DNA of 64,000 nt from Sphingomonas sp. NFR04. Its GTDB lineage: Bacteria > Pseudomonadota > Alphaproteobacteria > Sphingomonadales > Sphingomonadaceae. A program made the translations under genes and the position numbers. Location of the stretch: assembly GCF_900114095.1 (NCBI RefSeq), contig NZ_FORV01000001.1, positions 310,001-374,000 on the forward strand. Reading direction: 5' to 3'. Of this stretch, positions 14,567 through 35,788 are shown one piece after another (the stretch's first letter is position 1; every line of letters starts with the position of its first letter). Below the pieces are notes generated by a model. That model did no database searches and was not told the DNA's origin. It was given only the letters and a program-made list of their open reading frames with translations.

Positions 14567-14607
14567 TAGGTAGCGGCGCTCTCTAAGACCTGCCTGAGGC
14601 TACCTAT
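14566..14607. terminator. Convergent hairpin between the Cys-rich gene and the beta-helix gene
   Basis: A 9-bp stem ATAGGTAGC/GCTACCTAT with a 24-nt loop spans both stop codons of the convergent genes. There is no U-tract, so termination is a positional inference. Confidence 0.35.
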
Positions 14608-15626
14608 TGCCCAGCCACCCCGCCGACGTAGTTGCCCGCCGGCAGCGATTTGACGGTGCTATTCACGTAGAAGACCGGCGCTACGTTGCCCTCGACTACT
14701 GCACCGGGGTCGTTGATCTTGATCCACGGCGTCACGCCCGGGCAGGCATCGATGCGGTTGAACCGAACGATCGTACCTCGGGCCTGGGTCACATAGAGCG
14801 CGATGGCCTGCCAGTTGACGCACCTGAACAGGTTTCCCGCGATCTCGATGTTCGTGTAATCGCCGCGCTTTTCCTCGTCCCCAAACCAGATGCCCTGCGG
14901 GTAGACATAGGCTGACCCTGGCTGCGCATCGCCGATGAACTGGTTGGAGATGATGCGGATGTTCTTGCAGGCCGCAGGCATCCCCGTCGTCCAGCACTGA
15001 ATGCCGTCCGGGTGGTACGTGCCGATGGTGCGAAATTTGGAGAACTTGTTCCAGGCGATCAGGGCCCCGGCAACGCCGGGGATCTCGATCGCGTCGACGC
15101 CGATCCAGCTGATGTCGTTGTCGCGGATGACGATGTTGGTGCTCTGCTTGGCGTTGATGCCGACCCCGATCTCGACGATGCGCGAACCAGAGAGCGTGAA
15201 GCCGTCGCTCTGCGCCACCATGACCCCGTTGCGCTCGTCCACCACCCCATCGAGGAGGCCGTGAATGAAGAGCTTGTCGAGCGTGATGCCCGACCCACCA
15301 TTGACCCGGATCAGGTAGTCATAGATCCGCGTGACCGACGTCACCTCAAGGTTGGAGAAGGTGATGTTGGCCGAGCGGTTGAGGACGATCTGCGCGATCA
15401 CCGCCGGCCGCGCCAGGTCCGCGCTGGTGATCATCACCGGCTTCGCGAACACCTGGTCGTTGATGACCAGCGCCCCGTAAGCGCCGGGGGCAAGCGCGAT
15501 GGTATCGCCGGGCTTTGCCGCCTTGATCGCGGCGGTGAGCTGCGCGGGCGTGGCGACGGGGATCGTTGCCGCGTGTGCGGCGGCGGGCGCCATGAGCAGG
15601 ATCATGGCGAGGAGGAAACGGAGCAT
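14604..15626 (-). CDS. Exported right-handed beta-helix protein
   Basis: This 340-aa protein has a signal peptide (MLRFLLAMILLMAPAAAHA) and a start typical of parallel beta-helix polysaccharide lyases (VATPAQLTAAIKAAKPGDTIALAPGAY). Repeated Asn-rich turns follow (ANITFSNLEVTS, TNIVIRDNDISWIG, KNIRIISNQFIGDA). The fold resembles pectate-lyase/chondroitinase-B-like proteins and phage tail spikes, but no catalytic residues can be assigned. It lies 32 bp after the 932-aa gene on the same strand, so both are probably expressed together. Confidence 0.7.
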   Translation of the reverse strand: MLRFLLAMILLMAPAAAHAATIPVATPAQLTAAIKAAKPGDTIALAPGAYGALVINDQVFAKPVMITSADLARPAVIAQIVLNRSANITFSNLEVTSVTRIYDYLIRVNGGSGITLDKLFIHGLLDGVVDERNGVMVAQSDGFTLSGSRIVEIGVGINAKQSTNIVIRDNDISWIGVDAIEIPGVAGALIAWNKFSKFRTIGTYHPDGIQCWTTGMPAACKNIRIISNQFIGDAQPGSAYVYPQGIWFGDEEKRGDYTNIEIAGNLFRCVNWQAIALYVTQARGTIVRFNRIDACPGVTPWIKINDPGAVVEGNVAPVFYVNSTVKSLPAGNYVGGVAGQ

Positions 15627-15658
15627 GGTGATTTCCTTCTGGAGCTGGAGCGGCGGCG

Positions 15659-18457
15659 TCAGGATGCTCGCTCATACGCACCCACGGCGCCGCTGCCGTC
15701 GGTGCGCCGGGTGACGCCAAGGATGTCGAACTTTCGCGCCTGCCGCGACGCGCGGTTGACGATCACCGAGCCGGCGACCGGGCGGAAGTCGCCCACGGTT
15801 TCGGCCTGGTTGGCCGCGTTGGTCACGCCGGTCGTGTCGCTGACGAACTGCGACGAGAAGGTGCTCGTCCCACCCAGCGCGAAATAGGTCGAGGACGGGT
15901 CGATCCACATGCCCAGATAGCTGCTGATCCCGGGCGCATTCCCGGATTCCGAACCGTTCAGGTTGACGTTCAGCGCCGACGCAACGCCATATACCGGCCA
16001 ATAGTTCTGGCAGCGCGAGCCGGCGGGCGGATTGTTGCCGTGACCCGTGCTGTCCCAGACGATATTATCCGTGGTCGAGAGATTGAAACCGCGGAATAAT
16101 TGCGTGTGATAGGGCCCATTGCTGTCGTTATAGGCAAGGTTGTGGCGCTGCCCCAAGAATGAGTTGTACGCCTCGACCAGGTTATAGATCGGCACCGAGG
16201 AGCCATCCGCGCCGATCTGCGCGACCTTGCAGCCGACATAATAGGCGGACTTCGCCAGGTTGCCGTCCAGCGACATGCCGAGAACCGGATAGCCATAATT
16301 GCCGCCGGCATTGTACGTGTAGAGGAAGATTAGGACGCCGCCGTTCGAGTTAACCGGCCCGTGAATACGGTTGTCCCGGATCACCGAGAACATCACCGGC
16401 ACGGTCGGTGCAGCGAAGTCGCGGATAGCGGTCAGCAGGAAGATCGTGTTGCCGATGGTGTTCGGCGTGCTGACATAGCCGCCGTTCGGGCCATTGAGAT
16501 TGTTCCCGGCAACAAGGGCATAGCCGGACTGCTGCTGCTTCGGCTCGCCGATCACCGCCGCGTTGAGGATGCTGCTATTCAGCAGCCACACCCAACCGTT
16601 CCGCCACTGCAAGCCGAACGTGGTGTCGAAAGCTGTGTAGGTCACGCCGCTGATCACCAGCTCGCCGGTCGCCTGCTTCACGATCGCGGTGTTGTCGGTC
16701 GCGCGGTCGAAGAAGATGTTGGCCGAGCTTGTCGCGGTCGCGGTCATGGTCACGCCGTCGCCGAACCACATGCGCGGGTGCCCGGCCTTCACCGGACCAT
16801 TCCCGAAGATGACGGTGCCGGGCGCAGCTGACGGGTCCGCCTGCAGGTAGAACCACACGCTGCCTCGCGTCCTGGTGCCCATCGCGGTGCCGAAGCCGTT
16901 GTGGGTGCCCGCCTTCATGTAGGCATGCCCGCCGCCGCTGTCGTTGTGCGTGGTCAGGCCGCCGCTTGCCGTGTTGTGGTAGCTCTGCAGCGCCGTCTCC
17001 GCTGCCGCAGGGGTGGCGTAGCAATTCGACAGCGTGCCCTTGGCAGCATCGGCCGCGGCAAAGGTGCTGAACACGCCCGTGGTGCCCGTCGCGGTTCCCG
17101 AAGGATCGATGAAGCAATAGCCGATCTTCAGGAGGTTGGATGGGTCGTTGTAGAAGTGCCAGCGCGCCTGGATGTTGCGGCTGTTCACGATCAGGTTGTC
17201 GCTGCCGATATAGGCCCAGGTGCACGTCCCGTCGGTCACGTCGGTTGACACGATCGTGCCGGTTGGCCCGCCAGAGGAGGCGGAGACGCCGGCCGTCTTC
17301 AGCTGATAATAGTTCGAGCCGTTGCGGACGATGGTGCCGACGAAGGTATAGGCCTGCGACGCGCGCCAGTCGGCGCCCTCGCCACCAAACCTCGTGTTGA
17401 ACGACGTTCCCAGCCAGGGGCACACCTCGAGCTCGATGAAACAGTCGCCGGCGGGGAGCGAGGACGTGTTGAACGTCAGCGGGAAAACCTCGACCGCGCA
17501 ACCTCCTGGCCCGGACGTCGTGTACTGGGTCGACAGCTCGGTATCGACGACATCGGCCAGCACCACGCTTGCGGTGCGTGCCATGTTCCAAGCGGTGGCC
17601 CGGATGCCGGCAACCGGCCGGCGGCCACCGATGTGGATCCCCCATCCATGATCGACGACAACCTCAACACGGAGCGTGCCGGTCGACCGCTGATGCGGCG
17701 GCGTGATGATCGTCACGATCGGCGATGGATAGGGCATGGTCGACAGGTTGGTGACGGTTGCGCCGGACCCGATCGAGGCGAGCGAGGCCGCGATGCCCGA
17801 CACATAGGCACCAGCCCCCAGGCTGACGCTCTTGATGACCGTGCTCTTGTAGATGGGCATGTCCGTCATGACGTGCGCGATCACGTCGCCGCTAGATTGC
17901 TGCTCGATATAGCCGGTGTCCTGGGTCAGCGGGATCAGCTTCCACAGGACACCGCCGTCGGAAACGGTCTGGCCGTCGGCCGAGTGCGTCGGCGCCGTCG
18001 TACCCTTGGTACCGCCCAGCTCGGTGTAATATGCCCGCGTCACTCCCCCCGAGGTGACCGAAGAGCAATAAGAGCGCGCCGGCACAGTAGAACCAAGGCT
18101 CAGCCAGTCCTTGGGCCACGGGCGCTTAGCGGGCAACGTGCCCCTGACCGCGCGGGTAATACGCTGCTCGGTGATTACGCCGCCAATGACGTCATAAGAC
18201 ACATCTTCGACCAGCATCACCAGCTTGGTCGCATCCAGCGGCGGGTCGTTGATCGGATGCCGGAGCGGCATGTTGTTGATCGTCAGCGCAACCGCGCAGC
18301 CGGTGAGATCAGGGAACGAGCCGTTGTCGTTGGCGACGGCGCCAGCCACCGAGGATAGCGCCACCAGGCCGTCGATCACCGGCGCGGCGGGCAGCGCCGG
18401 CCGCGCCGCGAACAGAGCCCGGCTGGAGACAGACAGATTCAAGGCGCTAAGGCGCAT
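15659..18457 (-). CDS. Large phage-type structural or surface protein
   Basis: This 932-aa protein has no signal peptide. The N-terminal 300 residues contain virion-like Gly/Ser/Thr-rich segments (YYTELGGTKGTTAPTHSADG with DGGVLWKLI, a motif also seen in tail or decoration proteins). The C-terminal half is rich in Asn/Gly turns consistent with a beta-helix (IRDNRIHGPVNSNGGVLIFL). The C-terminus (RRTDGSGAVGAYE) matches the ends of many beta-helix repeat proteins. Tail spike or host-binding protein is the best guess; no tail-assembly genes accompany it. Confidence 0.6.
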   Translation of the reverse strand: MRLSALNLSVSSRALFAARPALPAAPVIDGLVALSSVAGAVANDNGSFPDLTGCAVALTINNMPLRHPINDPPLDATKLVMLVEDVSYDVIGGVITEQRITRAVRGTLPAKRPWPKDWLSLGSTVPARSYCSSVTSGGVTRAYYTELGGTKGTTAPTHSADGQTVSDGGVLWKLIPLTQDTGYIEQQSSGDVIAHVMTDMPIYKSTVIKSVSLGAGAYVSGIAASLASIGSGATVTNLSTMPYPSPIVTIITPPHQRSTGTLRVEVVVDHGWGIHIGGRRPVAGIRATAWNMARTASVVLADVVDTELSTQYTTSGPGGCAVEVFPLTFNTSSLPAGDCFIELEVCPWLGTSFNTRFGGEGADWRASQAYTFVGTIVRNGSNYYQLKTAGVSASSGGPTGTIVSTDVTDGTCTWAYIGSDNLIVNSRNIQARWHFYNDPSNLLKIGYCFIDPSGTATGTTGVFSTFAAADAAKGTLSNCYATPAAAETALQSYHNTASGGLTTHNDSGGGHAYMKAGTHNGFGTAMGTRTRGSVWFYLQADPSAAPGTVIFGNGPVKAGHPRMWFGDGVTMTATATSSANIFFDRATDNTAIVKQATGELVISGVTYTAFDTTFGLQWRNGWVWLLNSSILNAAVIGEPKQQQSGYALVAGNNLNGPNGGYVSTPNTIGNTIFLLTAIRDFAAPTVPVMFSVIRDNRIHGPVNSNGGVLIFLYTYNAGGNYGYPVLGMSLDGNLAKSAYYVGCKVAQIGADGSSVPIYNLVEAYNSFLGQRHNLAYNDSNGPYHTQLFRGFNLSTTDNIVWDSTGHGNNPPAGSRCQNYWPVYGVASALNVNLNGSESGNAPGISSYLGMWIDPSSTYFALGGTSTFSSQFVSDTTGVTNAANQAETVGDFRPVAGSVIVNRASRQARKFDILGVTRRTDGSGAVGAYERAS

Positions 18458-26181: not shown

Positions 26182-28977
26182 CTATGGGCGGACAATGATC
26201 GTCGCGCGCAGGGCTCGGCCGAATTCTGGCCGGGCGAAGAAGTAGCCACTGCCCCGGCCGTCTGCATTGAAGGACCCGCCTCTCGGGTTCCCTTCAGTCA
26301 GCCCGAGCGTGTTCGTCAGGTTCGTGATGCGGACGACGAGCTTCAGCCTCTCCGAGAGCTGGGCGTCCACGTGGAGATTGAGGAGCGAAAAGGGCGGCAG
26401 GCGCTGAGTGTTGGCGATATCCGCGAAGCGCTCGGAATAATGGACGATTTCGGATGCGAGACGAAGATCGCCGCCAAACAGGACGAGGCTTGGGGTTGCG
26501 CGGACCGCAAGCTTCGGCACGCGGATCAGATGGTTGCCGGTCACATCGAAGGTTACCGGCGCGCCGTCCACGAGATCGACATAGCGGAAATTGCGGTAGC
26601 GCGGGTCTTGCAGCGTTGCCTGCACATCCAGATGTACCGGTCCCACGAGTTCGGCATGGCCGTCCAGCTCAAGGCCCCGCGTCGTGGTATCGGCGATCGA
26701 GGTCCGTTCGACATAGCTGTAGGACGCAGGATCGAAGCGATAGTCGGCGAAGGGCAGCCGTGTGAAATGGGTCCGGAATGCCACGGCGGATAGGTTCCAG
26801 CGCCGGTGCCGCAGCAGCAGCCCCGCCTCGATCATGGCGATCGGAACCGCCGCTTCGTCGGCTCGGTTGGGATTTCCGTTGAATTCGGTTGCGCTCGGCA
26901 GCCGTGCGATCCGCGACACACGCGCGAACATGCCGCTGCGGGGCGTGGGATTGAAGTTTGCGCCAGCGGTCCAACTCACGCCAGAAAAGCTGCGGTGGAT
27001 CGGCGTGATCGCACCTGTTCCGGTCAGCACCGCGTCGTCCGCCAAGGTCGCCGGATCGCCGAGATCCACCGCCACCGCGCCTTCGACGCCCCCGCCTATC
27101 CGGGTACGCTCCCAGCGCGCGCCCAGATCCAGCCGCCAGCGCGACGACAGCTTCCATTCGTCCGCCCCATAGATCGCGACGTCCGACGCGCGCAGGTCGA
27201 CATGGTCGAACAGCGAGCCGTAGCGGAGAAATCCATTGTCGGTGAGCGCGCCGAGCAGCTGCCCCGTCCCGTCGAGCGCCACGACATCCAGACGCTGCGC
27301 CCGGCCGCGCACGTCCAGCAGCACCGAGCCCATTTCCCGATCGAAGCCAAGCCGCATGTGATCATAGCTTAGGCCAACCGCCGCTTCGTGGCTGCCCAGC
27401 GCATCCAGTCGCTGCGTCAGACGCGTGTCGGAGACGAACTCGGTCATCGGCATCCGCACTGAAAGCAGGTTTGCGCTCACGACAAGGCCGTTGCCGTTGC
27501 TATCTGGAAGGAACGGCATGCTGCTGCCCGTGTAGCGGATCTGAGTCGCGGCGGTGCCGGGAAAGGCAGACACCAGCTGGGTGCGGACGCCGTCGAGATA
27601 GGCGGCGCCGGACATCGGGCGTCCGATCGGGAACAGCCCATTGCGCAGGGTGCTTCCAGTGCGCAGGCGCGCCTTGCTCTCCAGCGCAAGCCCCTGCCCC
27701 AGCGCCAGCCGTGCGGTAAACGTGTAGAACGTGACGCGGCTGTGCGTGCCTTCGGAAAGATCGAAGTCCGTGGTGCCGGCAGCGGTCTTCATGGGCACGT
27801 GCACCGCCTGCGGGCCGGCCAGCGTGTCGAACAATGGATCAAAGCCGGGAATGGCGCGGATGGCACCGTCAGCACCGGCCTGGAGCGGCACCGGCAGGTA
27901 CAGGATGACACGGTCGTCGAGGTGCTTGACGTTGAACGCAAGGCGCACGCCCCCGTCGTCATACTCGATGGCGCCGCGAAGCTGGCCGCCGCGGTCGGCG
28001 GGATAGCCCGGATCGCGCAAACCATCGTCGCGGCGGTAAAAGCCTCCCACCGACAGACCGAGATGCGGCGCGAGGGCGGCGCCTGCGAAGCCGTCGATCC
28101 GCTGGTAGCCGAAGCTTCCCAGCGTGGCGGAAAGCGTCGTGCCCGGCCTATGCAGGCCGGAGCGCGTAAGGAAATTGACGCTGCCGCCGGGTGCATTGGG
28201 CATGAATACCGCAGAGGGGCCGCCGCGGACCGCCTCCACCCTGTCGATCGTCGAGTCGGCGCGAAAAACCTGATCGGTGTTGAGATATCCCAGCCCTCCG
28301 TCATATTGGACCGGTAGCCCGTCCTCGAGCAGCGCGACCGACGAATAGCCGTCGGTGGGGATGCCACGCGAACGCACATTGTTGCTCGCCTCGCCGCCCG
28401 TGGACTCGACCCAGAAGCCGGGAATCTGCCTGAACAGGTCTGCCGTGGATCGCGGCCCGGCCCGTGCCAGCGTGTCGGCGTCGATCGGCGTCACCGCGTA
28501 GCTGAGCGCGGTATCGCGTAGCGGCGTGCCGGCAGCGCGCCCGGTGACCACAAGCTCCTCGGGCGGGGGGAGCGGTTCCGGGGGCATTGCTGGTTTGGGT
28601 CGAGCCTGCGGCTTGGGAATGGGCCGGGTGCTCCGTGCCGGCGCCGCCCGCAGGATGACGACGCGATCGGACATGCGTGCGACCGCAAGACCGCTGTTGC
28701 GCAGCAGTCGATCGAGCGCCGCGCGGGCCGTCATCCTGCCGCGCACGCCGGCGCAATGGCGAGGGGCAGCCAGGCGGTATGGGTAGAGGATCTGCACGCC
28801 CGCCTGCCGAGCGAAGCTATCCAGAGCGGTCGCCAGGCTTTGTGCCGGGATGTCGAACAGGGCTTCCCGCTGCGGCTGCGCCTGTGCGGGCGCGACCACG
28901 ACCACCGCCGCGCCGCACGCCAGCCGGCAGGCACGCAAGGGCATGCGGATGGGAAACAGGCTCCGACTCAGGCGCAT
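26182..28977 (-). CDS. TonB-dependent receptor with N-terminal STN signalling domain (FecA-like)
   Basis: This 931-aa outer-membrane receptor has a signal peptide ending near APAQAQ and an STN domain (residues 35-115: FDIPAQSLATALDSFARQAG and ARAALDRLLRNSGLAV). A Pro-rich linker, the plug (from ELVVTGRA, about 140-260) and a 22-strand beta-barrel ending in Phe-containing GRALRATIIVRP-type strands follow. The STN domain contacts a FecR anti-sigma factor, and fecR- and fecI-like genes lie directly upstream on this strand. It is closely related to the receptor at 30813. Confidence 0.92.
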   Translation of the reverse strand: MRLSRSLFPIRMPLRACRLACGAAVVVVAPAQAQPQREALFDIPAQSLATALDSFARQAGVQILYPYRLAAPRHCAGVRGRMTARAALDRLLRNSGLAVARMSDRVVILRAAPARSTRPIPKPQARPKPAMPPEPLPPPEELVVTGRAAGTPLRDTALSYAVTPIDADTLARAGPRSTADLFRQIPGFWVESTGGEASNNVRSRGIPTDGYSSVALLEDGLPVQYDGGLGYLNTDQVFRADSTIDRVEAVRGGPSAVFMPNAPGGSVNFLTRSGLHRPGTTLSATLGSFGYQRIDGFAGAALAPHLGLSVGGFYRRDDGLRDPGYPADRGGQLRGAIEYDDGGVRLAFNVKHLDDRVILYLPVPLQAGADGAIRAIPGFDPLFDTLAGPQAVHVPMKTAAGTTDFDLSEGTHSRVTFYTFTARLALGQGLALESKARLRTGSTLRNGLFPIGRPMSGAAYLDGVRTQLVSAFPGTAATQIRYTGSSMPFLPDSNGNGLVVSANLLSVRMPMTEFVSDTRLTQRLDALGSHEAAVGLSYDHMRLGFDREMGSVLLDVRGRAQRLDVVALDGTGQLLGALTDNGFLRYGSLFDHVDLRASDVAIYGADEWKLSSRWRLDLGARWERTRIGGGVEGAVAVDLGDPATLADDAVLTGTGAITPIHRSFSGVSWTAGANFNPTPRSGMFARVSRIARLPSATEFNGNPNRADEAAVPIAMIEAGLLLRHRRWNLSAVAFRTHFTRLPFADYRFDPASYSYVERTSIADTTTRGLELDGHAELVGPVHLDVQATLQDPRYRNFRYVDLVDGAPVTFDVTGNHLIRVPKLAVRATPSLVLFGGDLRLASEIVHYSERFADIANTQRLPPFSLLNLHVDAQLSERLKLVVRITNLTNTLGLTEGNPRGGSFNADGRGSGYFFARPEFGRALRATIIVRP

Positions 28978-29042
28978 GAAGCGTCCGTGCCGCCCGCACG
29001 CGACAGCTTCGTGTCACGCGCCGCTTGCGGAATAGTCGTGCG

Positions 29043-30002
29043 TCAGTTGGAACGGCGGAACAGCTCGATCCGATCACCCGCGCGGCGGTGATCGATCGCG
29101 AAGCCTTCGCGCAAGGCGAGCAGAAAGCTGTCCGGATCGTCGATCTGGAACGCGCCGCCCAGTCGGGTGCCGGCAAGATCGGCCTGTCGCAGCACCATCT
29201 TCTCCGGCAGGTAGCGATTGAACTCGGCGATCGCACGGTCCAGCCGCATGCCGTCAAATATGATCCGGCCCTGCTCCCAGGCCGTCGCGGCCGCGAGCGC
29301 GTCGGGCAACCATCGGCTCACCTGCGCCTTGCCATCGGCGACGGTCAGCGCGCTGCCGGCTCCAATCGTCTCGCTCGGCGCACCCCGATAAGCCGCTGTC
29401 GCGCTACCGGTGACGACGAGCAGCTGCCCACCTTCCGGGGCAAGCCGAAGGTTGAACCTGCCGTCGCTGAGCCCTGCTTCTATGGGATCGCTGTAGAGGC
29501 GGACCGGCGTTGCCCCCGCCCGGACCAGCAGCGCCGCCTCGCCGCGCTCGACCCACAATTGCCGATCGCGGCCGAACCGCCATGCCAGCTGTGTATCGGT
29601 ATTCAGCATCGCCAGGCTGCCATCGGGCAGGCGCAGGGTGCGCCGTTCGCCCACCGCCGTCGCGGCATAGCTCCGGCGCGGCCAGGCGAGGAACGCGCCC
29701 GCACCACCCACGCCCAGCAACGCTGCCGCGCCCGCCGTCACGGCCCGGCGCGACACGCGATGCGGTGCAACCGGCGCAGCCATTGGCGGCGGCGGCGCTA
29801 TCGGATCTATCAGCATGGCAAGTTGCGGATCGGCGGTTCGCCGCCATGTCGCGGCGACCTGCGCGAAGACCGAAGCGTGGCGGGGGTCGGAATCGCGCCA
29901 GGCGGCGAATGCCTGCTCGTCGGCGGTGCCGCAATCGAGCGCCACCAGCCAATCGATCGCCTGCGCCTTCAGATCCGCTCCAGCCTTTCCTTCGTCTCCC
30001 AA
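29043..30002 (-). CDS. FecR-type anti-sigma factor
   Basis: This 319-aa protein has an N-terminal cytoplasmic DUF4880 domain (AIDWLVALDCGTADEQAFAAW), one transmembrane segment preceded by SRRAV (residues 85-108), and a periplasmic FecR domain (about 115-215) with a C-terminal STN-contact region. It would hold the sigma factor inactive until the STN-type receptor signals substrate binding. It overlaps the sigma gene by 34 bp and precedes the receptor by 65 bp. Confidence 0.9.
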   Translation of the reverse strand: MGDEGKAGADLKAQAIDWLVALDCGTADEQAFAAWRDSDPRHASVFAQVAATWRRTADPQLAMLIDPIAPPPPMAAPVAPHRVSRRAVTAGAAALLGVGGAGAFLAWPRRSYAATAVGERRTLRLPDGSLAMLNTDTQLAWRFGRDRQLWVERGEAALLVRAGATPVRLYSDPIEAGLSDGRFNLRLAPEGGQLLVVTGSATAAYRGAPSETIGAGSALTVADGKAQVSRWLPDALAAATAWEQGRIIFDGMRLDRAIAEFNRYLPEKMVLRQADLAGTRLGGAFQIDDPDSFLLALREGFAIDHRRAGDRIELFRRSN

Positions 30003-30544
30003 GATGCGTGCTCCGTCTTCGCCCGTGCTTCCGTTCGGTTCAGCCGCTGCATCAACAGGCGAAGGGCCTTTACCAGATGTGTCTCCACCGTGGAGACGGA
30101 GATGTTCATTCTCTCCGCTACTTGCGCCGGGGGCAAGCCGTCGATTCTCCGCAGAATCATCGCCTCGCGCATCCGCGGCGGCATTTCCTGCAGCACACGG
30201 GCGACATGCTGGAGCTCCGATCGGTCCATCGCCACCACGTCGGGCGTCGGATCCTGGTCCGTGGTCTCCAGAGCCTGGAGCAGCGCGCCCTGGGCGAGCT
30301 GCACCACTTCCGCGCGACGGAACCGCTCGATCGCGAGGTTCCGCACGATCCGGATCGTGAAGGCGTGCGGGTTGGCGATGGCCGCCCAGCCATCAAGCGC
30401 GAACAGCCGCGCATAGGCTTCCTGCACCAGTTCCTCGGCCTCGTCGGCCCGGCGAACCAGGCGCGTCGCGTAGCGGAGCGTCTGCGCGTGATACGCAAAG
30501 ACGTGATCGGCAAACCAGACGTCGATGTCGCGTAGCCATGCCAT
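29969..30544 (-). CDS. ECF sigma factor, FecI type
   Basis: This 191-aa protein has sigma region 2 (residues 18-80: TRLVRRADEAEELVQEAYAR and FTIRIVRNLAIERFRR) and region 4 (about 120-172: MPPRMREAMILRRIDGLPPA then QVAERMNISVSTVETHLVKA). It is co-encoded with FecR. Likely targets are the receptor genes on either side. No clear FecI-type promoter could be recognised in the 268 bp upstream of the receptor at 30813. Confidence 0.92.
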   Translation of the reverse strand: MAWLRDIDVWFADHVFAYHAQTLRYATRLVRRADEAEELVQEAYARLFALDGWAAIANPHAFTIRIVRNLAIERFRRAEVVQLAQGALLQALETTDQDPTPDVVAMDRSELQHVARVLQEMPPRMREAMILRRIDGLPPAQVAERMNISVSTVETHLVKALRLLMQRLNRTEARAKTEHASWETKERLERI

Positions 30545-30812
30545 CCCGTGTCGCCCTCCGTCGCTTCAGCCGCCGGGCTGCGACTAGGACCCGCGTATGA
30601 CAGGGAATTGACAGGGGTGCCGTCGCCACTGCGTTTTCGCGGACGCACAAAAAATTTCGCCGCCGAGTAGCGGAACCGTCCGCCCAAGCCGTCTTCGTCG
30701 CGAAAGCACCTTGCAACGCATCCCCCGACGCGCGGTCGCGCGGTGGGCCAACCGATCGCGCATCCGGCGCGGCCGGAGGATGTCGCGCGTCCGCAATCCA
30801 AAAGGGAACATC

Positions 30813-33281
30813 ATGAAGCCTTCGCTGCTCAGCGCGTCACTGCTCGCCATCCTCTGCGCAACCGCCGCGCCCACCTGGGCGCAGGATCAGCGCCCGGAGG
30901 CGGCAGACGAGGCCGCGCCCGGCGAGGCGATCATCGTCACCGGGCGCGCCGGTACCGGTGAGCGGACCAAGGCCGAGATGAGCTATTCGGTCACCCGCAT
31001 CGACGAAGAAGCGCTGCGCCTCCAGGCCCCGACCAGCGTCACCGAGGCGCTGAAGTCCGTCCCGGGCTTCTGGGTCGAGGCATCCGGCGGCGAGGCGAGC
31101 GGCAACGTCCGCGCACGCGGCGTGCCGGTCGACGGCTATGGCTCGATCCAGCTGCTCGAGGACGGCGTTCCCGTCCAGCACGATCCCGCGCTCGGCTATC
31201 TCAACGGCGACCAGGTGTTCCGCCTCGACGAGACGATCGAGCGGATCGAGGTGGTTCGCGGCGGCCCCGCCTCGCTCTTCTACTCGAACGCACCCGCCGG
31301 CGCGGTCAATTTCATCCCGCGCCAGGTGGGCGACACCGCATCCGGCATCGTCAAGGCGACGGTCGGTGCGGACAGCATGTACCGCATGGATTTCTGGGTG
31401 GGCGCGCCGGTCGGCGAGTGGAAGCTCGCGCTGGGTGGCTTCTACCGCTCCGAAGGTGGAGTGCGCGATCCGGGCTTCACGGCAAACCATGGCGGCCAGC
31501 TGCGCGCGACGGTGTCCCGCGATTGGGAGCGCGCCAAGTTCAGCCTCGACGTCAAGCATATGGACGACATTGTCGGCTTCTACACCGGCATCCCGATGCG
31601 GACCTATCCGGACGGCAAGATCCGCGCGGTACCGGGGTTCGATGGCCATTATGGCACGGTTGCAGGGCCCGAGACCGAGCGCGTGAAGATGATCATGGGC
31701 GACGGCAGCACCTATGATTTCGACAACAGCGTCGGCACGCAGGTCAAGCGTACCCAGGTGACCGGCAAGTTCGCGTTCGAGCCGTGGGACGACTGGAAGA
31801 TCACCAACACCTCGCGCTACAACGACACGACCACCCAGCGGAACGGCGTCTATCCCAACACGCTGCAGAGCGCGTCCAGCCTGCTGGCCCAATCGGCATC
31901 GCTGCTGGGCCAGGCGCCCGGCGCGACTGCGCTGCAGCTGCGCTATGCGACGACGCCGACCCAGCGCTTCGACACCGCCAACCAGAACGGCAACGGACTG
32001 GCGATCGTCGGCGGCCTGCGCGGGCTCACGCTTCCGGTAAAGGAATTCATGAGCGACACCCGCGTGTCGCACCGCTTCGACCTGGGTTCGACCACGCACG
32101 ACGTGACCTTCGGCTATTATTTCGCCCATATCGACGAGACGTTCGGCCGCTATTCGTCGACCGCGCTGCTGGATGTGCAGGACAATGCGCGGCTGCTCGA
32201 TCTGGTCGCGGTCGACGGGGCGGGAAATGTCGTGCGGACGTTCACCGATCACGGCATCTACAAATATGGCTATGAGTGGGAAGACGCACATGGCGAGCAG
32301 ACCTCGCATGCGCTGTATCTCGCCGACGAATGGCAGGTGACGCCGCGGCTCCGCATCGACGGCGGCGTGCGCTGGGAGACGATGCGCACCCGCGGCACGG
32401 TCGCACTCAAGAAGACCGTCAACCTCGGCACCTTCGCGACCTCGTCGATCCAGACGGAAAGCGGCGTTTACGCCAATCATGACGACAATTTCAGCCACGC
32501 GACCTGGACGCTGGGCGTCGACTATCAGTTCGGGCGCAACGCCGGCCTGTTCGCCCGCTACACCTCGGCCAATCGCCTGCCGAGCCTCGGCAACTATATC
32601 ACCAGCCCCACCGCCAAGCCGATCATCCAGACGATGGACCTGGGCGAAGTGGGCGTGAAATATGCGAGCGCGCTGGTCTCGCTCTATGCGACCGGCTTCT
32701 GGACCAAGTATAACAACGTCTCGTTCACCAACTATCGCTTCGACCTGAACGGACCGGCGGTGAGCGAGGCGCGCTACGCCGACACCCAGACCTTCGGCCT
32801 GGAACTGGAAGGGACGCTGCGCCCGATGCGCTGGTTCGACCTGTCCGGCACCGCCACGCTGCAGGATCCCAAGTACAAGGGGCTCACCTATGTCGATGCG
32901 ACCGGCAAGAATTTCGATTTCGACGGCAATCGCCTGATCCGCATTCCGACCGTCAGCCTGCGTCTCGTCCCCGGCCTCAACCTGCTGGGCGACCGTCTGC
33001 GCCTGCAGGCGTCGTGGGAATATGAAGGCAAGCGCTATGTCGACACCGCCAATTCGGTGCGGCTGCCGGCCTATGCCACCGTCAATCTGAGCGCGCGGTT
33101 CAACGTGTCGCAGGCATTGTCGCTGTACGGCTATGTCGACAACCTCAACAATTCGCTGGGTCTCACCGAAGGCAATCCGCGCGCGGGCGAGCTCCAGAAC
33201 GGCGATGCGGGTGCCAACACCTTCATCGCGCGTCCGTTGATCGGCCGGAATTTCCGGGCCGCGCTGATGTACAAGTTCTGA
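30813..33281 (+). CDS. TonB-dependent receptor paired with a CehA/McbA hydrolase
   Basis: This 822-aa receptor has a signal peptide (LLAILCATAAPTWA), plug (EAIIVTGRAG onward) and beta-barrel ending RNFRAALMYKF. There is no STN domain. The plug is plainly paralogous to the STN receptor at 26182: compare SVPGFWVEASGGEASGNVR here with QIPGFWVESTGGEASNNVR there. ATG 30813 has a good ribosome-binding site (aaaggga). The hydrolase starts 3 bp after the stop, so the pair is translationally linked. Confidence 0.92.
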   Translation: MKPSLLSASLLAILCATAAPTWAQDQRPEAADEAAPGEAIIVTGRAGTGERTKAEMSYSVTRIDEEALRLQAPTSVTEALKSVPGFWVEASGGEASGNVRARGVPVDGYGSIQLLEDGVPVQHDPALGYLNGDQVFRLDETIERIEVVRGGPASLFYSNAPAGAVNFIPRQVGDTASGIVKATVGADSMYRMDFWVGAPVGEWKLALGGFYRSEGGVRDPGFTANHGGQLRATVSRDWERAKFSLDVKHMDDIVGFYTGIPMRTYPDGKIRAVPGFDGHYGTVAGPETERVKMIMGDGSTYDFDNSVGTQVKRTQVTGKFAFEPWDDWKITNTSRYNDTTTQRNGVYPNTLQSASSLLAQSASLLGQAPGATALQLRYATTPTQRFDTANQNGNGLAIVGGLRGLTLPVKEFMSDTRVSHRFDLGSTTHDVTFGYYFAHIDETFGRYSSTALLDVQDNARLLDLVAVDGAGNVVRTFTDHGIYKYGYEWEDAHGEQTSHALYLADEWQVTPRLRIDGGVRWETMRTRGTVALKKTVNLGTFATSSIQTESGVYANHDDNFSHATWTLGVDYQFGRNAGLFARYTSANRLPSLGNYITSPTAKPIIQTMDLGEVGVKYASALVSLYATGFWTKYNNVSFTNYRFDLNGPAVSEARYADTQTFGLELEGTLRPMRWFDLSGTATLQDPKYKGLTYVDATGKNFDFDGNRLIRIPTVSLRLVPGLNLLGDRLRLQASWEYEGKRYVDTANSVRLPAYATVNLSARFNVSQALSLYGYVDNLNNSLGLTEGNPRAGELQNGDAGANTFIARPLIGRNFRAALMYKF

Positions 33282-33284
33282 GCG

Positions 33285-34808
33285 ATGACGGTGCGTACCG
33301 CCTCCGCCGCGCTTGCCCTGCTTTTCGCCCTCGCCGTTCCTGCACATGCGCAGGGCGGCCGGATGGAGACGCCGCCATCGCGCGAGGAGGCGCGTGTGCC
33401 CTGGCGCGTGATCAAGGGCAGACTCACCCGTGCGGCGTATGAACGCTACACGGAGCTGCCGTTCGACCTGCCGGAAGGCGTCGCGCGCCTGACGATCCGG
33501 TTTCGCTATGGCGGCAAGGAACAGCGCTCGGTGATCGATCTGGGCCTGCGCGATCCGCACCGCTTTCGCGGCTGGAGCGGCGGCACGCGCAGCAGCATGA
33601 CGCTCAGCACCGAGGATGCGACGCCAGGCTATCTTCCCGGCCCGCTGCCCGCCGGGTGCTGGAACCTGATCCTCGGCGCGCCCAATATCCGCGAAGGTGC
33701 CGAGGCGCCCTATGAAGCGGCGATCTTCATCGAGCGGCAGCCGACCGCCATCGAATTCGCCGATGCGCCGATCTCGGCCACCGCCGGCTGGTACCGCGGT
33801 GACCTGCACCTCCATAGCGGCGACAGCGATGGGCGGTGCAAGGCCCAGTCGGGGGCGAGCATTGCCTGCCCCGTCTACCGCACGGTAGAGGCTGCGGCGG
33901 CACGCGGGCTCGATTTCATCGCGCTCAGCGATCACAACACCACCGCCCATTACAACGCGCTCCGCGAGCTGCAGGGCGCGTTCGACAAGATGCTGCTGAT
34001 CCCCGGCCGCGAGATCACCACCTTCTGGGGCCATGCCAACGTGTTCGGGCCCACCGATTTCCTCGATTTCCGCATGGTAGGGCCGACCTGGAGCGAGGCG
34101 CGCAAGTGGATCGATCCCGTCCACCGCGAAGGCGGGATCGTCTCGGTCAATCACCCCGGCGCGCCCTCCGGCGAAATCTGCATGGGCTGCGGGTGGCGTT
34201 TCGGCGACCTGCCGGACGGTGCAGTGGATTCGATCGAGGTGGTCAATGGCGGTACGATGCGCGAGACGCGATCCGCCGACGGTGCGCTGCAAGGCTTCGC
34301 CGCCTGGAACAGCTTGTTGAACGCGGGCCATCACGTCACCGGCATCGGCGGAAGCGACAGCCACGAGGCCGACCGCCCTGCCGCCGAGGCGGGTTCGATC
34401 GGCAGCCCCACCACCGTGGTCTACATGCGGGACCTGTCGGTGCGGGGATTCCTCGACGGCGTTCGCGCCGGCCGCGTATTCATCGACGTCGAGGGTACAC
34501 GCGATCGCGTCCTGGACCTGGTGGCAACCATAGACGGCCGCCGCGCGACCATGGGGCAGACGCTACAAGCCCGTGCAGGCGAGACGATCCTCTTCACCGC
34601 GTCGCTCCAGGGCATGACGGAGGGGGTCGTGCAGCTGGTCATCGACGGCAAGGCCGACGCGCCCTTCCGCACCACCTTTGCCAGGGACCGTCCAGCATCT
34701 CCCTGGCTTTGGCGCACCGATGGCCGCACCCACTGGATCCGCGCTGAGGTGCGAGACGGTGACGGGCGCCTTCTCCTCATCGGCAACCCGATCTACTTCA
34801 CGGACTAG
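33285..34808 (+). CDS. Exported CehA/McbA-family metallohydrolase (PHP-like fold)
   Basis: This 507-aa protein has a signal peptide (ALLFALAVPAHAQ), an N-terminal beta-rich region (residues 45-165) and a PHP/polymerase-histidinol-phosphatase-like metal site: DLHLHSGDSDG near residue 173, FIALSDHNTTAHYN, GREITTFWGHANVFG, and a later GGSDSHEADRP. Family members include the carbaryl hydrolases CehA and McbA, but most natural substrates are unknown. It probably acts in the periplasm on a compound brought in by the linked receptor. Confidence 0.88.
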   Translation: MTVRTASAALALLFALAVPAHAQGGRMETPPSREEARVPWRVIKGRLTRAAYERYTELPFDLPEGVARLTIRFRYGGKEQRSVIDLGLRDPHRFRGWSGGTRSSMTLSTEDATPGYLPGPLPAGCWNLILGAPNIREGAEAPYEAAIFIERQPTAIEFADAPISATAGWYRGDLHLHSGDSDGRCKAQSGASIACPVYRTVEAAAARGLDFIALSDHNTTAHYNALRELQGAFDKMLLIPGREITTFWGHANVFGPTDFLDFRMVGPTWSEARKWIDPVHREGGIVSVNHPGAPSGEICMGCGWRFGDLPDGAVDSIEVVNGGTMRETRSADGALQGFAAWNSLLNAGHHVTGIGGSDSHEADRPAAEAGSIGSPTTVVYMRDLSVRGFLDGVRAGRVFIDVEGTRDRVLDLVATIDGRRATMGQTLQARAGETILFTASLQGMTEGVVQLVIDGKADAPFRTTFARDRPASPWLWRTDGRTHWIRAEVRDGDGRLLLIGNPIYFTD

Positions 34809-35110
34809 GGATGGTCCCATACCTTCCGGTCGATGCGTGGGACCTGCGCCTGTCATCGTTGCCGCCCAGCATCGCCGCTTGGCGCCGGCGATCTGCATGT
34901 CGGAGACAGCGGCAAAAAAGGTCCTTCACCGTTGTTGATGGGAGCAATGGCCCTCCCTGGAATCCGTTGCTCTGAATAAACCGTCGACCACCGGGGGGGC
35001 AGGTCATTTGCCTGGGCGCGAAAAGCTCCTTCGATCACATTGATTTGCGATGTCCTGGGTATATGGTTGCTCGTCGAAAGACGATATCTCGTAAGGCAAC
35101 AGGGGGCCTG
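34809..35110. other. 302-bp intergenic region
   Basis: No gene, terminator with U-tract or repeat recognised. The segment from 35040 to 35100 is A/T-richer and probably carries the promoter of the PEP-CTERM gene. Confidence 0.35.
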
Positions 35111-35788
35111 ATGAAAAAGAAATTTTATATCGCCATCGCGTGTATCATCTCCCTCGGATGTGCCAGCCAGGCTGGCGCTGCGCCTGTGTTGCAAAGCATC
35201 CATGGCAGTGGGAAAATTGTTTCAGGATATCTGACGGACGAGTGCTGCGAGTACAACTACTACAACGCAGACCTGGCTGGTCTCTCGTTCTCTTTTGCGT
35301 ATGATATTCAGAACGATCCTGTGGATCCGATGATCATATTCAATTTCAAGATGGATCCGCCCGCTGTGACGGTGACCACGCCATTTTTGCCGGGTTCTGA
35401 GCCCTATGACTGCAACTGCGGCGATAGCTATTCGCAGTTATTGACGTATGATTTCTATTCAGGGTCGCAGCCGACTGTTGTTGGCAAGCAGTTCAGTTTT
35501 TCCGACGCCGGCTATAATTTCAACTTTTCACTCGCTGGCGTCGTAAATAGCACTGGATCACAAGGCTACCAGGCTACCGCCTTGACTGGGCACCTCAATG
35601 GGTGGCTTGGCGGCGCGGCGCAAATCAGGTCTGTTGAACTCGCGATGACGGATGTCACGATTACCTTTGTCAATTCCAATGCAGTCCCGGAACCCCAGTC
35701 TTGGGCCACGCTCATTGGCGGCATCGCACTTGCTGGCGGCGCAATGCGCCGGCGACGGGCAGGGCCGCGAACTGCCGTCGCCAATTAA
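35111..35788 (+). CDS. PEPxxWA-CTERM exported protein
   Basis: This 225-aa protein has a signal peptide ending ASQAGA, a beta-rich body with four Cys (CCEYNYY; CNCG) and a C-terminal PEP-CTERM sorting signal: VPEPQSWATLIGGIALAGG followed by an Arg-rich tail. Such tails are processed by an exosortase/XrtA system, not present in this window. Its codons are A/T-richer than the neighbours', suggesting recent acquisition or low expression. Confidence 0.8.
   Translation: MKKKFYIAIACIISLGCASQAGAAPVLQSIHGSGKIVSGYLTDECCEYNYYNADLAGLSFSFAYDIQNDPVDPMIIFNFKMDPPAVTVTTPFLPGSEPYDCNCGDSYSQLLTYDFYSGSQPTVVGKQFSFSDAGYNFNFSLAGVVNSTGSQGYQATALTGHLNGWLGGAAQIRSVELAMTDVTITFVNSNAVPEPQSWATLIGGIALAGGAMRRRRAGPRTAVAN

What the first reader, a model, noticed from the sequence alone, without database searches (positions are those of the whole stretch)
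26182..34808. Paralogous TBDR pair, FecIR and a CehA/McbA hydrolase: possible uptake and hydrolysis system
One receptor has an STN domain and is read from the sigma/anti-sigma strand; its paralogue lacks STN and is translationally linked to an exported CehA/McbA hydrolase. The STN receptor may act as the sensor while the second imports the same compound, which is cleaved in the periplasm. CehA/McbA enzymes act on carbamates such as carbaryl, but the natural substrate is unknown and could be a phosphate or ester compound.
Basis: partly seen in the sequence, partly recalled or inferred. Interest (0 to 1): 0.65.

Follow-up and report, generated by a model that had tools for sequence, protein, structure and literature searches.

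The report
Phosphate-starvation-controlled nutrient uptake and hydrolysis genes
In Sphingomonas-type bacteria, five neighbouring genes look like a switch that opens only when phosphate is scarce and a particular phosphorus-containing food is present, then makes the gate that imports that food and the enzyme that cuts it, which suggests that an enzyme family named after pesticide breakdown may naturally serve to scavenge phosphorus.

Summary
The genes are as described: STN-receptor A, FecR and FecI on one strand; STN-less receptor B and an exported CehA/McbA (PHP-fold) hydrolase H on the other.

(1) A Pho box upstream of fecI: conserved in 7 of 7 related loci and recovered by a matrix trained only on pstS promoters.
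(2) A FecI-type promoter pattern (GG-N16-CGTC[CT]) upstream of the receptor-hydrolase unit in 11 of 11 loci with FecIR, 0 of 12 without, 0 of 7 FecR-A gaps.
(3) STN in exactly one receptor of each FecIR locus (11 of 11), in 0 of 20 receptors of loci without FecIR.
(4) PI-PLC-C1 genes beside H (8 of 57 loci), elsewhere GH92 or an AppA-like phytase; H and PI-PLC-C1 co-occur in 8 of 13 H genomes (296 sampled).

Best reading: a PhoB-gated cell-surface signalling system that scavenges an organic phosphorus compound, perhaps an inositol-phosphate diester, rather than a carbamate. A and B are ancient paralogues. Published parallels exist (VreI/PhoB, Flavobacterium PUS loci); this combination was not seen in print. 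Substrate and regulation are unproven.

The parts
26182..28977 (-). Receptor A: TonB-dependent receptor with STN domain, proposed sensor
29000..29017 (-). Conserved element in the FecR-A gap, GTGACACGAAGCTGTCGC in A's sense; weakly Pho-box-like (pstS-trained matrix p<=0.05 in 4 of 7 loci, p 0.055 in the window)
29043..30002 (-). FecR-type anti-sigma factor (DUF4880 and FecR domains)
29969..30544 (-). FecI-type ECF sigma factor
30597..30614 (-). Pho box CTGTCAA-TTCC-CTGTCAT, 52 bp before the fecI start codon
30668..30697 (+). FecI-type promoter pattern TAGCGG-N16-CGTCTTCG before receptor B
30813..33281 (+). Receptor B: TonB-dependent receptor without STN, proposed importer
33285..34808 (+). H: exported CehA/McbA-family PHP-fold metallohydrolase

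Best explanation
A phosphate-gated, substrate-induced scavenging system. When inorganic phosphate is short, PhoB binds the Pho box before fecI and turns on fecI-fecR-A. Receptor A, through its STN domain, reports the presence of an organic phosphorus compound to FecR, which frees FecI. FecI then transcribes the B-H operon from the GG-N16-CGTCT promoter: B imports the compound and H, a periplasmic PHP-fold metallohydrolase, cuts its phosphoester bond so that phosphate can be taken up. The most likely substrate class is an inositol-phosphate (di)ester such as the head group of phosphoinositides, glycerophosphoinositol or glycosyl-inositol-phosphates, perhaps after release by a PI-PLC-C1 enzyme, which in this genome is encoded elsewhere. 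Shown: gene content, conservation of order, the STN-FecIR link, the two promoter motifs, neighbourhoods and co-occurrence. Inferred: PhoB and FecI binding, direction of signalling, shared ligand, the chemistry of H and the substrate.
For: Pho box: the only exact CTGTCA-N5-CTGTCA in the genome; same strand and 51-55 bp (once 68) from the fecI start in 7 of 7 distinct loci, shuffles reaching the score 0-22 of 500; a CTA/TTA element 9 bp on in 7 of 7. A matrix from the 7 fecI boxes finds boxes upstream of pstS in 19 of 24 scored loci against 11 of 60 control genes (Fisher 2.8e-7). In reverse, a matrix from 17 pstS boxes alone hits fecI in 7 of 7, other H operons in 10 of 16 (Fisher 6.6e-5) and controls in 10 of 80; this genome's own PI-PLC also scores (p 0.005). 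Sigma-type promoter pattern: 11 of 11 FecIR loci, 0 of 12 without FecIR, 0 of 7 FecR-A gaps, 0 of 5 gaps after other FecR genes (Fisher 11/11 against 0/12, 7.4e-7). STN: one receptor per FecIR locus in 11 of 11, none of 20 elsewhere. Neighbours: PI-PLC-C1 on the same strand beside H in 8 of the 57 distinct loci with H called (PF16670 E 9e-116 to 2e-137 in the 3 scanned); B-type receptor, PI-PLC and GH92-like gene in a row in L144; AppA-like histidine phosphatase near H in Novosphingobium rosa. Co-occurrence of H and PI-PLC-C1: 8 of 13 H genomes, 0.9 expected, 296 genomes (Fisher 1.6e-7). H: PHP residues invariant in 39 of 39 except D216 (33 D, 6 E); best structural matches are PHP phosphoesterases, 3e38 Z 21.6 and 2anu Z 21.5, RNase AM E 6e-9.
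Against: No expression or biochemical data. This genome's PI-PLC is unlinked. Within the genus H/PI-PLC co-occurrence is weak (4 of 8 H genomes, 5 of 21 other listed genomes; p 0.18; the list may be incomplete), and the 296-genome test ignores kinship. Several H loci have no related receptor called nearby (for example L042, L090, L102). No Pho box at 9 of 12 or better was found by this genome's phoX, and its pstS site matches only 8 of 12 of the strict string. Exact CTGTCA-N5-CTGTCA in 41 genus genomes lies by genes that do not look P-related. PI-PLC operons themselves have Pho-like boxes in only 5 of 15 (p 0.057). A and B split deeply, so their ligands may differ. The promoter pattern was found post hoc in the 7 block loci and by eye in three others; only L044 and the negatives were out of sample. 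The second CehA/McbA gene of this genome and H of L045 lie near sugar-acid-type genes. iolE is present only below cut-off.
Confidence: 0.66

Rival explanations
1. A phosphorus-scavenging system of the same design, but for a substrate without inositol: for example glycerophosphodiesters, nucleotides, teichoic-acid-like polymers or a phosphorylated sugar. PI-PLC-C1 is then only a frequent companion of phosphate-starvation genes.
For: The Pho box and FecIR evidence does not depend on inositol. PI-PLC adjoins H in only 8 of 57 loci and is unlinked here. The best structural matches include RNase AM and a nucleotide-binding PHP enzyme, 2yb1. Short CehA and H of L045 lie near sugar-acid-type genes.
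Against: PI-PLC next to H in Xanthomonadales, Sphingomonadales and an acidobacterium, in different positions; a phytase-like gene and GH92 in the same neighbourhoods; co-occurrence in 8 of 13.
Confidence: 0.22
2. A carbamate, ester or amide catabolic system: receptor B imports a plant or microbial carbamate or ester which H, a true carbaryl-hydrolase relative, cleaves for carbon or detoxification.
For: Family name NF038032; CehA and McbA hydrolyse carbamates, physostigmine is a natural carbamate substrate, and in Sphingomonas strain CDS-1 a TonB-dependent receptor lies upstream of cehA (PMC8292978, passages).
Against: Conserved chromosomal receptor operon in several phyla; Pho box before fecI and Pho-like boxes at 10 of 16 other H operons; PI-PLC and phosphatase neighbours.
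Confidence: 0.07
3. A siderophore or metal-chelate uptake system of the classical FecIR kind, in which H is a periplasmic siderophore hydrolase.
For: FecI/FecR/STN architecture; receptors match siderophore-receptor models below cut-off.
Against: Far below the FecA and siderophore-receptor cut-offs; the gene between receptor and H in Xanthomonadales proved to be a PI-PLC-C1 and not a ferric reductase; a Pho box rather than iron control is seen (a Fur box was not searched for).
Confidence: 0.05

Closest known systems
PUMA3 / VreA-VreI-VreR of Pseudomonas aeruginosa, PhoB-controlled cell-surface signalling (PMC4971064, passages seen)
   Same: Sigma and anti-sigma genes with a receptor-like protein, expressed under phosphate limitation through a pho box bound by PhoB
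   Different: VreA lacks the barrel and seems to act in signalling only; vreAIR is one operon, and the sigma targets also need PhoB; it controls virulence functions. Here A is a full receptor and the proposed target is a second receptor plus a PHP hydrolase
Phosphate utilisation systems PUSI-IV of Flavobacterium johnsoniae (PMC8115612, passages seen)
   Same: TonB-dependent transporter clustered with periplasmic phosphodiesterases (PUSI: PF16670 PI-PLC and an ECF sigma factor; PUSIII: sigma and FecR), strongly induced by Pi depletion
   Different: Bacteroidetes SusC/SusD pairs and another phosphodiesterase; no CehA/McbA hydrolase and no separate sensor receptor in the passages seen
FecA-FecR-FecI ferric citrate system of E. 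coli (recalled)
   Same: STN receptor, FecR anti-sigma, FecI sigma, sigma-driven transport genes
   Different: One receptor does both jobs and the ligand is ferric citrate; the FecA equivalog model is not met
CehA / McbA carbaryl hydrolases (PMC8292978, passages seen)
   Same: Family NF038032; exported or periplasmic metallohydrolases
   Different: CehA of Rhizobium AC100 lies in a transposon and acts on pesticides; H sits in a conserved receptor operon with phosphorus-type control
PhoB regulon of Caulobacter crescentus (PMC11208175, passages seen)
   Same: Includes TonB-dependent receptors, a phytase, phospholipase C and phosphodiesterases
   Different: No FecI/FecR relay and no CehA/McbA hydrolase in the passages seen

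Membership tests
Cell-surface signalling (FecI/FecR/STN receptor) system | ECF sigma factor with regions 2 and 4 | tested here: met
Cell-surface signalling (FecI/FecR/STN receptor) system | FecR-type anti-sigma factor | tested here: met
   PF04773 and PF16220 over cut-off
Cell-surface signalling (FecI/FecR/STN receptor) system | TonB-dependent receptor with STN domain | tested here: met
   over cut-off, E 5e-12; below cut-off
Cell-surface signalling (FecI/FecR/STN receptor) system | sigma-dependent promoter before target genes | tested here: inconclusive
   pattern in 11 of 11 FecIR loci against 0 of 12; binding not shown
Cell-surface signalling (FecI/FecR/STN receptor) system | ligand-induced, TonB-dependent signalling | not testable with these tools
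   needs experiments
Pho regulon | Pho box of 11-bp-spaced repeats before the operon, like that of pstS | tested here: met
Pho regulon | PhoB binding and induction by phosphate starvation | not testable with these tools
   needs experiments
CehA/McbA family metallohydrolase (NF038032) | score over the curated cut-off | tested here: met
   259 bits against 80
CehA/McbA family metallohydrolase (NF038032) | PHP-type metal-ligand residues (which residues these are is recalled) | tested here: met
   H175, H177, D182, H217, E243, H250, H290, D358, H360 in 39 of 39; D216 33 D, 6 E
CehA/McbA family metallohydrolase (NF038032) | carbamate hydrolysis | not testable with these tools
   no assay
Bacteroidetes PUS / SusCD system | SusD-type lipoprotein partner in the cluster | tested here: not met
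   Pfam scan of the five genes shows no SusD
FecA ferric citrate receptor | equivalog model NF041676 over cut-off | tested here: not met
   receptor A 55 bits against 1100

The most novel reading that the evidence does not exclude
Exported CehA/McbA-family enzymes linked to receptors are natural phosphorus-scavenging phosphodiesterases for inositol-phosphate compounds from plants, fungi or other microbes, and the pesticide carbamate hydrolases are a side branch. In one Sphingomonadaceae lineage the uptake system has become a two-key switch (PhoB AND ligand-activated FecI) in which one ancient receptor paralogue is a dedicated sensor and the other the importer.
Probability: 0.35. Interest if true: 0.76.

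Novelty: new variant of a known kind. Interest (0 to 1): 0.62.

Why it matters
If true, it gives a natural role to a widespread enzyme family that is annotated only by its action on a pesticide, shows how a Gram-negative soil bacterium combines nutrient need (PhoB) and substrate presence (FecI) in one circuit, and separates sensing from import between two paralogous receptors, a separation that can be tested directly because loci with one, two and no sensing receptor exist. Organic phosphorus, inositol phosphates included, is a large soil pool (recalled), so the substrate would matter for plant-associated bacteria. The two short promoter elements make the model cheap to test.

Tried and rejected
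Siderophore use of H: considered when a 337-387 aa gene appeared between receptor and H in Xanthomonadales; it proved to be PI-PLC-C1 (Pfam on one of these, L096). Recent A/B duplication: rejected by the tree (its three outgroup branches are long). Exact-string Pho box as stand-alone proof: rejected; 17 exact sites in 41 genus genomes against 4 for the reversed pattern, 13 of the 16 sites other than the window's own outside called genes, but beside genes that do not look P-related, such as HNH/gluQ-like (4 loci), DUF2490-like (2) and YVTN-like (2), names by eye. In the own genome 9 sites with at most one mismatch against 2 for the reversed pattern; in the window, two-mismatch matches are no more than chance (2 against 2.6). 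A scan of other H operons with a matrix of 7 fecI boxes plus this genome's pstS site gave 7 of 16 against 11 of 60, p 0.04; superseded by the pstS-trained matrix, whose 17 boxes I picked by eye from the 24 scored pstS loci. phoX as positive control failed. A Pho box before B on B's own strand: 1 of 7 at p<=0.05. Inositol catabolism: iolE only below cut-off. PDB sequence search for H: one weak hit, an exoribonuclease, E 0.0017. Rows dropped: duplicates L052, L085, L086, L092 and near-duplicate L055 (kept in the 62 and 57 loci counts, left out of the tree and the 7-locus counts); 5 of 62 loci where the gene caller found no H; 6 of 30 pstS loci where it found no gene. The gene caller also missed FecI and the N-terminus of the second receptor in L044, found by translation; FecI/FecR absence elsewhere was therefore rechecked by tblastn. 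For one of the five other FecR gaps (L155) the next gene was not identified. No Fur box search was made. Several control genes come from the same loci as the tests.
Full report
OBSERVATION. The five genes are real and as described. On the minus strand lie FecI (29969-30544), FecR (29043-30002) and receptor A (26182-28977; STN, plug, barrel); on the plus strand receptor B (30813-33281, no STN) and H (33285-34808, CehA/McbA NF038032, 259 bits against 80). B's stop and H's start are 3 bases apart. A is B's closest relative in the genome by far (40% identity; next 31%; 29 hits).

CONSERVATION OF ORDER. H relatives were found in 13 of 296 sampled genomes of the order (the window's own included) and in 53 loci of named genomes. 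With the 13 loci fetched from the sample and four duplicates removed, 62 distinct loci were examined, in 57 of which the gene caller found H. The block A-FecR-FecI / B-H is present in the window and in L034, L035, L036, L037, L051, L053 and L055 (L055 is nearly identical to L053 and left out of the 7-locus counts). In L038, L039 and L057 FecI-FecR-receptor-H stand in one row with a single STN receptor. In Qipengyuania (L044) the row is FecI-FecR-receptor-H-STN receptor. Many more loci have only receptor-H. Of the 13 loci from the sample, 12 have a receptor within two genes of H on the same strand; L042 does not. In Sphingomonas sp. BIN22 (L054) B and H remain while A, FecR and FecI are missing.

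SENSOR AND IMPORTER. A tree of 42 receptors groups the 39 that are linked to H or PI-PLC (98/98) and splits them deeply into an A clade (13 rows) and a B clade (26 rows); the three outgroup branches are long. STN was found in 10 of the 39 by profile and in an eleventh (L044) by reading its N-terminus. Each of the 11 FecIR loci has exactly one STN receptor; none of the 20 receptors from loci without a FecIR pair has STN (L064 has one weak sigma hit, 29% identity, without FecR). Both clades contain receptors standing directly beside H. A diverges faster than B (mean pairwise identity 66% against 80% in 7 loci).

SIGMA-TYPE PROMOTER. Upstream of B in 7 of 7 block loci is GG-N16-CGTCT. The pattern GG-N16-CGTC[CT] occurs once upstream of the receptor-H unit in 11 of 11 FecIR loci (in the FecR-receptor gap in L038, L039, L057 and L044), in 0 of 7 FecR-A gaps, in 0 of 12 upstream regions of loci without FecIR (L054 included) and in 0 of 5 gaps after other FecR genes (for L155 the next gene was not identified); 0 to 11% of shuffles contain it. 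The pattern was derived from the 7 loci and seen by eye in three more; L044 and the negatives were the test. So the sigma factor most likely drives the importer and the enzyme, not the sensor.

PHO BOX. Upstream of fecI lies CTGTCAA-TTCC-CTGTCAT (30597-30614, minus strand), the only exact CTGTCA-N5-CTGTCA in the genome. It is conserved on the same strand at 51-55 bp (once 68) from the fecI start in 7 of 7 loci and is followed 9 bp on by a CTA or TTA element in 7 of 7. To learn whether it is a Pho box in this group, pstS was fetched from relatives. A matrix made from the 7 fecI sites finds the same 11-bp repeats before pstS in 19 of 24 scored loci, against 11 of 60 control genes (Fisher 2.8e-7; the controls were scored with a matrix that also held this genome's pstS site). 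Conversely, a matrix made from 17 pstS boxes alone hits 7 of 7 fecI upstream regions (p<=0.01), 10 of 16 other H operons (Fisher 6.6e-5), 5 of 15 PI-PLC operons (p 0.057), 4 of 7 FecR-A gaps, 1 of 7 B upstream regions on B's strand, and 10 of 80 controls. This genome's own PI-PLC has a good box 86 bp upstream. Against: phoX has none, and the bare exact string stands before genes that do not look P-related in other genomes.

SUBSTRATE CLUES. A PI-PLC-C1 gene stands on the same strand beside H in 8 of the 57 loci, from Xanthomonadales, Sphingomonas, Novosphingobium, an acidobacterium and one unplaced proteobacterium, in different positions (3 of the 8 scanned by Pfam, E 9e-116 to 2e-137). Beside the H of Sphingomonas L036 a GH92 gene follows the PI-PLC. 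In N. rosa a B-type receptor is followed by PI-PLC and a GH92-like gene (L144, BLAST 71% to L036), and downstream of its block lies a second FecI-FecR-STN receptor set with an AppA-like histidine phosphatase (PF00328; NF007552 E 9e-71, below cut-off). In L160 a B-type receptor, a TetR-like gene, a short CehA/McbA gene and a PI-PLC gene stand together. Of 20 PI-PLC regions fetched, 14 have a receptor next door (12 of these by Pfam; L150 and L151 by eye), one has it three genes away, three have none, and in two the gene caller found no PI-PLC. H and PI-PLC-C1 co-occur in 8 of 13 H genomes (21 PI-PLC genomes of 296; Fisher 1.6e-7, not corrected for kinship; within the genus 4 of 8, p 0.18).

THE ENZYME. 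In 39 relatives H175, H177, D182, H217, E243, H250, H290, D358 and H360 and a Cys299-x-x-Cys302 pair are invariant; D216 is D in 33 and E in 6. The model (mean pLDDT 90.8) has an N-terminal beta-rich domain, a PHP domain and a C-terminal beta domain that matches FnIII-like modules. The best structural matches of the PHP part are 3e38 Z 21.6, 2anu Z 21.5, PsfC Z 17.4, RNase AM Z 16.0 and C. violaceum 2yb1 Z 14.7 (Foldseek RNase AM E 6e-9). A shared fold does not prove the activity.

MECHANISM. Phosphate starvation (PhoB) makes the sensing unit FecI-FecR-A; the compound at A frees FecI; FecI makes B and H; B imports and H cleaves. This is an AND gate of phosphate need and substrate presence. The inositol-phosphate identity of the substrate is the weakest step.

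AGAINST KNOWN SYSTEMS. It works like PUMA3 of Pseudomonas (PhoB-dependent VreA-VreI-VreR; PMC4971064, passages) and like the Pi-induced PUS loci of Flavobacterium, of which PUSI holds a PI-PLC and an ECF sigma gene and PUSIII sigma and FecR genes (PMC8115612, passages; the descriptions of Fjoh_4172 and Fjoh_4173 look swapped against their Pfam numbers there). By domain content it is a member of the FecI/FecR/STN signalling kind, not of the FecA family (55 bits against 1100) nor of the SusCD kind. A CehA/McbA hydrolase in such a circuit was not seen in the listings and passages of the searches, which cover open-licence papers only.

Noticed in passing
window 14604-18457 (-): A 932-aa protein without any Pfam hit followed by a 340-aa protein with a right-handed beta-helix.
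   Followed up: no
window 35105-35788 (+): A PEPxxWA-CTERM sorting-domain protein just downstream of H; no recurrent neighbour cluster of this kind appeared among relatives.
   Followed up: partly
window 60962-63478 (+): A third TonB-dependent receptor in the window, next to a glycosyltransferase gene.
   Followed up: no
L035 11562-17183 (same as L052): In Novosphingobium rosa a second FecI-FecR-STN receptor set with an AppA-like histidine phosphatase directly follows H: possibly a phytate system built on the same plan.
   Followed up: partly
L054 6461-10431: A natural loss: B and H kept, sensor, anti-sigma and sigma genes gone, and the sigma-type promoter pattern gone too.
   Followed up: partly
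L047 7070-8215 (G000:C13): The genome's second, shorter CehA/McbA protein lies next to GntR-like, symporter-like and 2-keto-3-deoxygalactonate-type genes (names by eye); H of L045 has similar neighbours, which hints at a sugar-linked substrate for part of the family.
   Followed up: no
L173 3197-3225: Three 11-bp-spaced Pho-like repeats between a PAP2-family gene and a DUF5690 gene in the same genome.
   Followed up: no
L181, L184, L188, L191: Exact CTGTCA-N5-CTGTCA sites recur between an HNH-endonuclease-like gene and a gluQ-like gene in four Sphingomonas genomes (names by eye); reason unknown.
   Followed up: no
L043, L144, L160: A TetR-like regulator accompanies the receptor subclade of these three loci (receptor with H, with PI-PLC and GH92-like gene, or with short CehA and PI-PLC), where FecIR is absent.
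   Followed up: no
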